From assembly GCA_028829895.1 (NCBI GenBank), contig CM054179.1:57419891-57483890 (forward strand): a stretch of DNA of 64,000 bases, in the 5' to 3' direction. How positions within the stretch are numbered: position 1 is the first letter of the stretch; each line of letters starts with the position of its first letter. Below, piece by piece: positions 27,601 to 30,600 of the stretch. A program made the position numbers and the translations under genes. Origin of the DNA: Sinotaia quadrata. Taxonomy: Eukaryota; Mollusca; Gastropoda; Architaenioglossa; Viviparidae. The notes under the pieces were generated by a model that did not search any database, was not told the DNA's origin, and worked only from the letters and a program-made list of their open reading frames with translations.

Positions 27601-30600
27601 CTTACAATAATTATTATCATACTATTAATATTTAATTATCTTACAATAATTATCATATGGTTGTTGGACTCATTGTTAAATCCTATTTTCAATCTGCAAG
27701 TGAGTTAAATAAAAACAATTAACTAAAGGATAAAATATCGCAAACGTTCTTTTTCTCTTTCAAAAGTTCAAAAGCTAGTTAAAGCTGAATCACTTTGTAT
27801 TCGCGGAAATCAAATTGTTCATTTTCAAATTTAATTTATTGTTAATTCTCTTAACTGTTATCTCTCCATGTTATTACATAATTCGACCAGAAGTGATTGC
27901 CAACTGGGGGCCGAGCCGTGAATAGAGGAATAAAGAATTATACTTATTAATCTATAAATAAAGGGGAGATAACATTGTTGGCAAAGAATTCAGCTAGGTG
28001 TCGTGAACAGTCAAGCAGAGATTGAGGCATTTGAAAGGGATATAAGTTAGGCAAGTCTGGCTGTCGCTAATGTTAGGGATTATCCTGTAAATTAAATTGA
28101 TAATTAGTGCCTAAATTAGGACAGGGTCATAAAATGAAAACCGGACATGTGACATGCCTAATGGGAGGTATTTAAAAGTCGTGTGATATGTTTAAAAGTT
28201 GTGATGCTTAGTGGGATGTTTTTAAAAGTCGTGTGATATGCCTAGTGGGATGTATTTAAAAGTCGTGTGATATGTCTAGTAGGATGCGTTTACTGATCAT
28301 AGCACCCTTTCACCTTTCGTGGTATTTTGTCGCGTCATAAGAAATCTTATTGACTGTTACTTGTTAATTGATCTTGGTGTCTTGAAACGTGCTAATTATT
28401 CTTGATATCCTGTTATGTTCTAATTAATCCTATTACCCGATACATGCTAATTAACTTTGGTATCGTGTTACGTTCTAATTAACCTTGTTATCTTATGTGC
28501 TAATTATCAGTGCTAACCTAATATGTGATATTATTAGTTTGCAATATGCTATCTGACCTTTACAATACTTGCTAACTGATTTGATACTTACTCTGTATCT
28601 TCTTAACTGACCTTGTTCTCTTGGAATGGTGCTAAGTGATTTGATATTTATTATGTTCTCTATATATCTTCTTAACTGACCTTGTTCTCTTGGAATTGTG
28701 CTAAGTGATTTGATATTTATTATGTTCTCTATATATCTTCTTAACTGACCTTGTTCTCTTGGAATGGTGCAAATTGAGGTGGTGATTGGTCCTCCTCATC
28801 TTTCCCGATTTGTAGCACGCGACTTTGAATGGAAGGCGTGGTGTACTGCCAGAGATTTGCTCTGAATAAAGTTTTCTTTATTCTTACAAACAGCACTTTC
28901 ACCTCAATAGTAACAAGTGCGGCCAGCCTCAATTCCAAGGGTTTTAGGTCCAGATCCAAGCTCAGTCTATAACAAAACATAAACATCTTACAAATCCTGT
29001 TCTACTCGAACACAACAATCATCTTTCAGATATATCGATTACATTTAAAGCAAAATTTATAAGTTACAACAGTTCATTTTTCACTTATAATTACTCACTG
29101 AAGCGAACAATGAAATCATCATTTTCTCCAACAATATATCTTTCCCTATAGTCATATTACCCATAAATAAATTTGTGTCCATATCTTTGAATAAGGCGTT
29201 CTATTATTTCTTAATCAACCAATCTATGTATTGTAATTTTAACAGTTGTTTTTCATGAACCAAATAATAAATTCCAGTCTGCCAATTTAGAACCCATTGC
29301 AAAATTATGTATTTGTCACATTAATCAGGTGATTATGATTTTTTGTTATCTCCTCTAAACTAGACAATATGGCGTGAGCTAGTTAAAGGAACCATAAAGC
29401 AAATTTCATGCCAACATTTTATACAGCTGAAACGTATCGCTACGTGTCAATTATTAGGAATGCTGCACTTCATCGCCTATGACTTATGGAAAGGAGATTG
29501 TGTTTATAGATGTTAGTATCATGTGTCATACACTTTTCACTAACACCCGCAGGTTAGACATGACTCTAACCACAAAATGATGTGAGTGAGTGACTGCACT
29601 CCACACTGATCAACAGGCATATATACAGCTCGCCTGAAACACTCACAAAATGGCGCCTGACCAGTTTAGACAGTAACACGAGTGAGCACATAGGCTGTTG
29701 AACGAATTGGTAGATTAAGACTATTGGCTGCATTGCAGAAATTAAATTTTAAAAAGCATTTTTAATAATTAAAATAGTATAGACATACATTCTACATGAT
29801 AGCTATCACAATGTTATATATGAGAGTTCGAACTTTGATGTGAGTCAATATACAATATACAAATATCAATACACTCTTGATTTTTAATGTTTCTTTGCCG
29901 GGATAATAACACTATGTAACAAATTTTCACTTTTGTTCTGTTCCTGGGTTGAAAGTGTGTTTTTCTAATCCGTTAGGTCTAGAACAGAAAGGAAATCACT
30001 GTTATTCCAGAAAAACTTTGCTTCTGTGACCGGGACAATGAAATTTGGAAAATCGCGTGTGTTCGAGAAAATTCTCGATTTGCTTTCAATGCCGAGCTTC
30101 CTCCCTGAACTGCTAGAGTTGTCCACATGTTTCTACAATTCTCCTGAACACTCTAGAACGTTCAAGAAACTTCCAGAACTTTCGAGAAACTCTCAGAACT
30201 TTCTAGAACGTTCTTGAACGTTCCAAAAGTAGCTGTACAAGTATAAAAGCACAGGTGTCTCGAACCAAGATTCCATGAGAAGTTATTTATTTGATATGGC
30301 ATCAAGAGATTGTTTGCATCCAGCTGATTCATTCTGCTACGTGTGCAGACAATTCATAAAGACAAGAGCGAAAAAGTATTCAGTGGAAGCAAGTCGTATA
30401 ATGTGCGAGGCCTACAAGGCATACTTCGGCGTGCCGGTCGGGGACCAAGACAAATCTTGGGCACCGCATTTCACATGCGAATATTGCAAGAAAACACTTG
30501 AAGGTAAACTGAACAGTTGCTTCTCGCTTAGATGTGTTTTAATTTATTTTCATAAAATTTCAATGCTTTAGATCGAGTTCATTTCAAAGAGTTGTAATTT

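What the first reader, a model, noticed from the sequence alone, without database searches (positions are those of the whole stretch)
30131..30300. DNA transposon with a full heat-shock promoter
Fourteen GAA/TTC blocks at exact 5-bp alternation (13 intact), variable spacers, then TATAAAAG 18 bp on and the transposase-like ATG about 50 bp further. This is the architecture of an Hsp70 promoter, with a longer HSF-binding array than usual. It implies a transposon family that fires under heat or proteotoxic stress. Heat-responsive elements are known elsewhere (ONSEN in Arabidopsis, HSE-bearing Helitrons in Caenorhabditis), but I do not recall one for this family.
Basis: partly seen in the sequence, partly recalled or inferred. 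Interest (0 to 1): 0.88.

Follow-up and report, generated by a model that had tools for sequence, protein, structure and literature searches.

The report
Gastropod transposon with heat-shock promoter
A cut-and-paste transposon present in hundreds of copies in what is likely a snail genome carries, just ahead of its transposase gene, a row of heat-shock-factor motifs longer than in the five host Hsp70 genes examined, followed by a TATA box, so it is predicted to be switched on by heat or protein-damaging stress.

Summary
Window 30146-30223 has 16 slots at exact 5-bp spacing, 14 of them intact GAA/TTC. TATAAAAG follows 18 bp on (30242), with ATGs at 30275 and 30296. The array lies inside a 1,986-bp element (29910-31895) with CACTATGTAAC termini and a TAA target duplication. 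Ends, 3-bp duplication and transposase motifs place it as EnSpm/CACTA-like (CMCT clade), in a mollusc that is probably a gastropod. Pattern counts give 353 copies of the 5' terminus and 390 of the family array. A generic 7-block heat-shock-element (HSE) pattern matches 4,126 times against 9 for its control, about what this family alone would give. Of 22 copies chosen through the transposase rather than the array, 22 keep a phased array and a TATA box, including one at 86% protein identity. Five host Hsp70 upstream regions score far lower. The window copy itself is non-autonomous: frameshifted and missing part of the catalytic core. HSF binding and heat induction are untested. HSE-bearing elements are known (ONSEN, Caenorhabditis Helitrons, DIRS-1). 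Nine paper searches listed no CACTA or other DDE transposon with an Hsp70-type promoter. Verdict: real, and a new variant of a known kind.

The parts
29907..29909 (.). 5' target site duplication TAA
   Evidence: matches TAA at 31896-31898
29910..31895 (+). the transposon copy, 1,986 bp, CACTA-like, internally deleted
   Evidence: sharp 5' boundary shared with 29 other copies; inverted termini
29910..29945 (+). 5' terminal inverted repeat, CACTATGTAACA..., imperfect (right edge approximate)
30146..30223 (+). heat-shock-element array: 16 slots of 5 bp, 14 intact GAA/TTC
30242..30249 (+). TATAAAAG, 18 bp after the array
   Evidence: same gap in 21 of 22 transposase-chosen copies
30275..30277 (+). 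upstream ATG in frame with MASRDC; present because this copy type lacks 44 bp of leader found in other copies
30296..30503 (+). predicted exon 1 of the transposase (MASRDCLHPADSF...)
   Evidence: same N-terminus as P0024
30504..30726 (+). predicted intron, GT...AG
   Evidence: comparison with P0024
30727..31654 (+). predicted exon 2, defective: frameshift, and the stretch with the second aspartate and C(2)C motif missing; a 317-aa ORF runs 30701-31654
31860..31895 (-). 3' terminal inverted repeat (left edge approximate)
31896..31898 (.). 3' target site duplication TAA
35676..41237 (+). second unit of a 5,560-bp tandem duplication; holds a second array (35706-35783), TATA box and ORF, but no 5' terminus

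Best explanation
This is a CACTA-like DNA transposon family whose 5' end carries a row of heat-shock elements and a TATA box ahead of its transposase gene, a promoter through which the host's heat-shock factor HSF likely drives the transposase under heat or proteotoxic stress. Shown: the array, the 18-bp gap to the TATA box, the array's presence at one end only (in the window copy), its presence across hundreds of copies including ones with different internal deletions, and a transposase with conserved D, D, E, C(2)C and H(4)H residues. Predicted: a RAG1/Transib-like transposase fold. Inferred: under stress HSF trimers load on the array, transcription starts about 30 bp after the TATA box (near 30272 in the window copy), and transposase from intact copies then moves both intact and deleted copies. 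The window copy has the promoter but no working transposase, so it would be a passenger that makes a defective transcript and carries strong HSF sites wherever it lands.
For: 14 phased blocks against at most 4 in simulations; 4,126 genome matches of a 7-block pattern against 9 for the control. 353 exact-or-near 5' termini and 390 family arrays, controls 0. Of 22 copies picked through the transposase, 22 keep a phased array and TATAAA, 21 with the 18-bp gap; one is at 86% protein identity. 71 of 78 exact termini on C1-C2 are followed by a perfect 7-block array. The window copy has no such array near its 3' end. Host HSF DNA-binding domains are present, 3 hits. Host Hsp70 promoters L035 and L036 use TTCTAGAA near TATATAAAG, and on a 16-slot scale five Hsp70 upstream regions score 24-28 of 48, the element 45, 150 random stretches at most 25. 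Transposase motifs; predicted fold. Helitron precedent for HSF-1-driven transposase mRNA: PMC6927752 (passages).
Against: No binding, transcript or transposition was measured. Copies are young (median pairwise divergence 1.7% in 30 window-type copies, chosen for closeness), so shared arrays may reflect recent spread rather than upkeep. Block-versus-spacer substitution counts are not decisive: 2/798 core, 4/532 spacer, 84/7157 flank in array-chosen copies; 10/1002, 12/625 and 2/581 in transposase-chosen ones, where flanks change least. 7 of 78 termini and 13 of 74 transposase C-termini on C1-C2 lack a perfect array in the lists. 2 of 30 array-chosen copies lost TATAAA. No copy was shown to be intact over both exons: L087, upstream of a stop-free exon 2, lacks the start of exon 1.
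Confidence: 0.74

Rival explanations
1. The array is a subterminal repeat bound by the element's own transposase or an accessory protein, as plant CACTA elements have (recalled), and its match to heat-shock elements is incidental or secondary.
For: It lies 236-313 bp inside the 5' end, and its length changes by 10- and 20-bp units in some copies, as subterminal repeats can do.
Against: In the window copy it is at one end only. It keeps an 18-bp gap to a TATA box even where it is shortened (L087). Alternating GAA/TTC at exactly 5 bp is the HSF grammar, and the spacers vary from block to block.
Confidence: 0.12
2. The promoter was functional in the ancestor but is now silenced or inert, and the array is conserved only because the copies are young.
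For: Low divergence; inconclusive conservation test; 44 of the 86 scored transposase matches contain a stop (my count).
Against: The closest pairs differ by 0.2-0.4%, which suggests recent movement; 42 of the 86 scored matches have no stop; the 86%-identity copy still has 13 blocks with one miss.
Confidence: 0.13
3. The array is a chance or simple-repeat feature of this minisatellite-rich window.
For: The window holds several minisatellites.
Against: Simulations never exceed 4 blocks; the backwards control matches 9 times genome-wide against 4,126; spacers differ between blocks.
Confidence: 0.01

Closest known systems
HSE-bearing Helitrons of Caenorhabditis (PMC6927752, passages read)
   Same: A DNA transposon that spreads HSEs, with HSEs at the promoter of its own transposase (14 at F33H12.6) and most HSEs of the genome inside it (61.4% in C. 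elegans).
   Different: Helitrons are rolling-circle Rep-helicase elements. This one has inverted termini, a target duplication and a DDE transposase, and one phased array with a TATA box rather than scattered HSEs. Heat response is shown there, untested here.
DIRS-1 of Dictyostelium (PMC2685390, one passage and its references)
   Same: A mobile element with an active heat-shock promoter of its own.
   Different: A retrotransposon with the promoter in its inverted terminal repeats; slime mould.
ONSEN of Arabidopsis (mentioned in passages of PMC6927752) and Cryptococcus TCN3/TCN12 (PMC12810828, passages)
   Same: Stress-responsive mobile elements; putative HSEs reported in the TCN LTRs.
   Different: LTR retrotransposons, in which the LTR is the promoter.
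EnSpm/CACTA and the CMCT clade of DNA transposons (PMC12730594, passages)
   Different: No heat-shock promoter was reported for the clade in the passages and listings seen; no Pfam model matches the protein above its cut-off.
Metazoan Hsp70 promoters (host L035-L039 examined)
   Same: GAA/TTC heat-shock motifs upstream of a TATA box, seen in L035 and L036.
   Different: The element's array is longer and cleaner than those of the five Hsp70 genes in the same genome; some of the five may be constitutive cognates.

Membership tests
EnSpm/CACTA (CMCT clade) | CACTA / CA..TG termini | tested here: met
   CACTATGTAAC...GTTACATAGTG in the window copy and L004; 29-base 5' terminus found 353 times with up to 3 mismatches, control 0
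EnSpm/CACTA (CMCT clade) | 3-bp target site duplication | tested here: met
   both ends read in 2 copies only: TAA/TAA (window) and TTA/TTA (L004); 5' flank TAA 30, TTA 20, AAA 1, ATA 1 in 52 distinct loci
EnSpm/CACTA (CMCT clade) | DDE transposase with C(2)C and H(3-4)H between second D and last E | tested here: met
   26 relatives: D199, D253, C275, H429, H434, E448, E451 invariant, C272 nearly so; the catalytic roles are inferred
EnSpm/CACTA (CMCT clade) | RAG1/Transib-like fold | tested here: met
EnSpm/CACTA (CMCT clade) | sequence match to a named EnSpm transposase family | tested here: inconclusive
   no Pfam match above cut-off; Repbase not available
Transib | 5-bp target site duplication | tested here: not met
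   3 bp in the two copies with both ends; 5 bp typical of Transib by PMC4411706 (passage)
HSE-bearing Helitron | rolling-circle element with Rep-helicase, without inverted termini (second half recalled) | tested here: not met
   inverted termini, target duplication and a DDE-type protein are present
heat-shock promoter | three or more alternating GAA/TTC blocks at 5-bp spacing near a TATA box | tested here: met
   14 of 16 slots, TATA at +18
heat-shock promoter | bound by HSF in stress | not testable with these tools
   host HSF domains exist; no binding data
heat-shock promoter | transcription induced by heat | not testable with these tools
   no expression data

The most novel reading that the evidence does not exclude
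This family has become the genome's main store of strong HSF sites: roughly 390 arrays, each long enough for several HSF trimers. Every heat shock would fire intact and deleted copies together; deleted copies then compete for transposase and may make dominant-negative fragments, so each heat shock both triggers and limits a transposition burst, while the arrays draw off HSF and make neighbouring genes heat-responsive.
Probability: 0.22. Interest if true: 0.82.

Novelty: new variant of a known kind. Interest (0 to 1): 0.64.

Why it matters
Whether stress directly triggers transposition is an old question, and few animal cut-and-paste elements carry a readable stress switch. Here the switch is explicit and sits in hundreds of young, near-identical copies, so one heat-shock experiment in the host would show whether it works. 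If it does, heat waves would drive both new insertions and rewiring of the heat response through one element, in an animal class in which many species live with sharp temperature swings.

Tried and rejected
Chance or satellite origin: rejected by simulations and the backwards control. Insertion into a host heat-shock promoter: rejected, because the array lies inside the termini of many copies. Transib membership: rejected on the 3-bp duplication.

Species identity was not reached: a nuclear COX1-like copy matches gastropods at up to 94%, and among named whole-length Hsp70 hits Batillaria, Pomacea and Littorina are closest at 83-86%. Block-versus-spacer conservation was inconclusive. The 7 exact termini without a perfect array could not be read. 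Papers: nine searches, several of them capped lists of much larger hit sets; no CACTA or other DDE transposon with a heat-shock promoter was among the listed titles and abstract starts; the library lacks most subscription journals. PMC12810828, PMC6927752, PMC2685390, PMC3072357, PMC12730594, PMC4298943 and PMC4411706 were seen as passages; all others as listings.

Full report
OBSERVATION. At 30146-30223 the window has 16 slots at exact 5-bp spacing that alternate GAA and TTC, 14 of them intact (the other two read CTC at 30151 and TCT at 30191). TATAAAAG begins at 30242, 18 bp after the last block; ATGs in one frame are at 30275 and 30296. In 100 simulated 64-kb sequences of the window's dinucleotide composition the longest chain was 2 to 4 blocks. 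A 7-block pattern with up to 2 mismatches matches the whole genome 2,069 + 2,057 times, its backwards control 6 + 3 times.

THE ELEMENT. The array lies inside a transposon at 29910-31895 (1,986 bp). Its ends are imperfect inverted repeats beginning CACTATGTAAC, flanked by TAA on both sides. L004, the one other copy with both ends in hand, is flanked by TTA on both sides. In 52 distinct loci with an exact CACTATGTAACA the three bases before it are TAA 30, TTA 20, AAA 1, ATA 1, and the base before those is A in 52 of 52, so the target looks like ATWA (ATWAT with the two 3' flanks). The promoter search scored 40 of 374 candidates; 30 were fetched, of which one is the window itself. The other 29 match the window element from its 5' end onward at 96.5-99.5% and share its internal deletion; they were picked as the closest. 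Among these 30 the median pairwise divergence is 1.7%, the closest pair 0.2%.

IS THE PROMOTER FAMILY-WIDE? The 5' terminus matches 173 + 180 times and the family array 189 + 201 times, both with up to 3 mismatches and controls of 0. Each array read yields 4-12 matches of the 7-block pattern, mostly 11-12, so about 390 arrays would yield about the 4,126 matches seen. The family thus accounts for roughly all long HSE arrays of the genome; this is arithmetic, not a listing. On chromosomes C1 and C2, 71 of 78 exact termini have a perfect 7-block array 150-350 bp inside, and 61 of 74 listed transposase C-termini have one within 6 kb upstream. Of 88 perfect arrays listed there, 81 have an exact terminus or C-terminus beside them; of the other 7 one (L080) was read, and it also aligns to the element. 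For a sample not chosen by the array I took pieces upstream of transposase matches: 22 copies (L087-L108; 18 of them one deletion type, on the plus strand). All 22 have a phased array and TATAAA: 20 have 12-15 blocks, L087 has 9, and L090's array is split by a 1-bp indel; TATA is at +18 in 21. L106, from a copy with 86% protein identity to P0001, keeps 13 blocks with one miss. Thirty copies chosen by the array (L055-L084) show several different internal deletions, all downstream of the promoter; that set is biased towards the array. TATAAA is lost in 2 of these 30. A 44-bp leader segment just after the predicted start, found by an exact 16-mer in 21 of these 30 and in 0 of the 30 window-type copies, is missing from the window copy, which brings an ATG to 30275.

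CONTROLS AND HOST. Five whole Hsp70 reading frames (L035-L039) were found. On a 16-slot scale their upstream regions score 24-28 of 48, the element 45, and 150 random stretches of the window at most 25; only L036 exceeds that random maximum. L035 and L036 show TTCTAGAA near TATATAAAG. So the host seems to use the same motif in shorter form; some of the five may be constitutive. HSF DNA-binding domains are present (3 hits). The host is a mollusc and probably a gastropod, from a COX1-like nuclear copy and Hsp70 names.

MECHANISM. Shown: architecture, spread, youth and transposase motifs. Inferred: stress-activated HSF loads on the array, transcription starts near 30272, intact copies make transposase, and copies with good ends move. 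The array at one end only, and the constant gap to the TATA box, favour a promoter over a transposase-binding subterminal repeat. Not shown: any binding, transcript or movement. Substitution counts do not settle whether the blocks are under upkeep: 2/798 core, 4/532 spacer, 84/7157 flank in the array-chosen set (seed excluded), but 10/1002, 12/625 and 2/581 in the transposase-chosen set.

KNOWN AND NEW. HSE-carrying mobile elements are known: Caenorhabditis Helitrons, which hold 61.4% of C. elegans HSEs and whose transposase mRNA is reported as HSF-1-dependent and heat-induced (PMC6927752, passages), DIRS-1 (PMC2685390, passage), Cryptococcus TCN3/TCN12 (PMC12810828, passages) and ONSEN (mentioned in PMC6927752). 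A DDE, CACTA-type element with a compact Hsp70-type promoter was not among the papers listed by nine searches, several of which list only the top of many hits. I file it as a new variant of a known kind.

Noticed in passing
window 30116-35675 and 35676-41237: A 5,560-bp head-to-tail duplication with one mismatch (34809) starts inside the element and copies its promoter, ORF, 3' end and about 3.8 kb of flank. It is either very recent or an assembly artefact.
   Followed up: partly
window 31895-32319, 34024-34639, 28591-28797, 41387-41680: Minisatellites of 56, 67, 69 and 49 bp.
   Followed up: no
G000 C6:73820803, C5:54663212, C2:99324679, C7:53151095, C5:54616573; C26:15244: Five whole-length COX1-like copies on large chromosomes with 9-12 TGA codons each; the one translated (C6) reads through as gastropod COX1 in the invertebrate mitochondrial code. 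They outscore the copy on small contig C26, which has only 3 TGA.
   Followed up: partly
P0007, P0014, P0024, P0032, P0050, P0062: Relatives of this transposase at 60-74% identity over part of the query in piranha relatives, sturgeon, mantis shrimp, a frog, a moth and a tunicate: a patchy spread that suggests horizontal transfer, not tested.
   Followed up: no
G000 C1:148816825, C1:125780255; L063, L080, L087, L097, L108: Array length and defects differ between copies, in part by 10- or 20-bp units (9 to 15 intact blocks in those read), as if the array grows and shrinks while the TATA gap stays 18 bp.
   Followed up: partly
5' flanks of 52 distinct copies: The base four before the terminus is A in 52 of 52, so the insertion target looks like ATWAT rather than any TWA.
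   Followed up: partly
exon-1-deleted copies such as L059 and L070: A deletion type that keeps promoter and start region but loses most of exon 1 has an ORF of 360-400 aa over the catalytic core in several copies, starting at MDYDSADE; it is the commonest type among the scored matches and may be a shortened active form.
   Followed up: no
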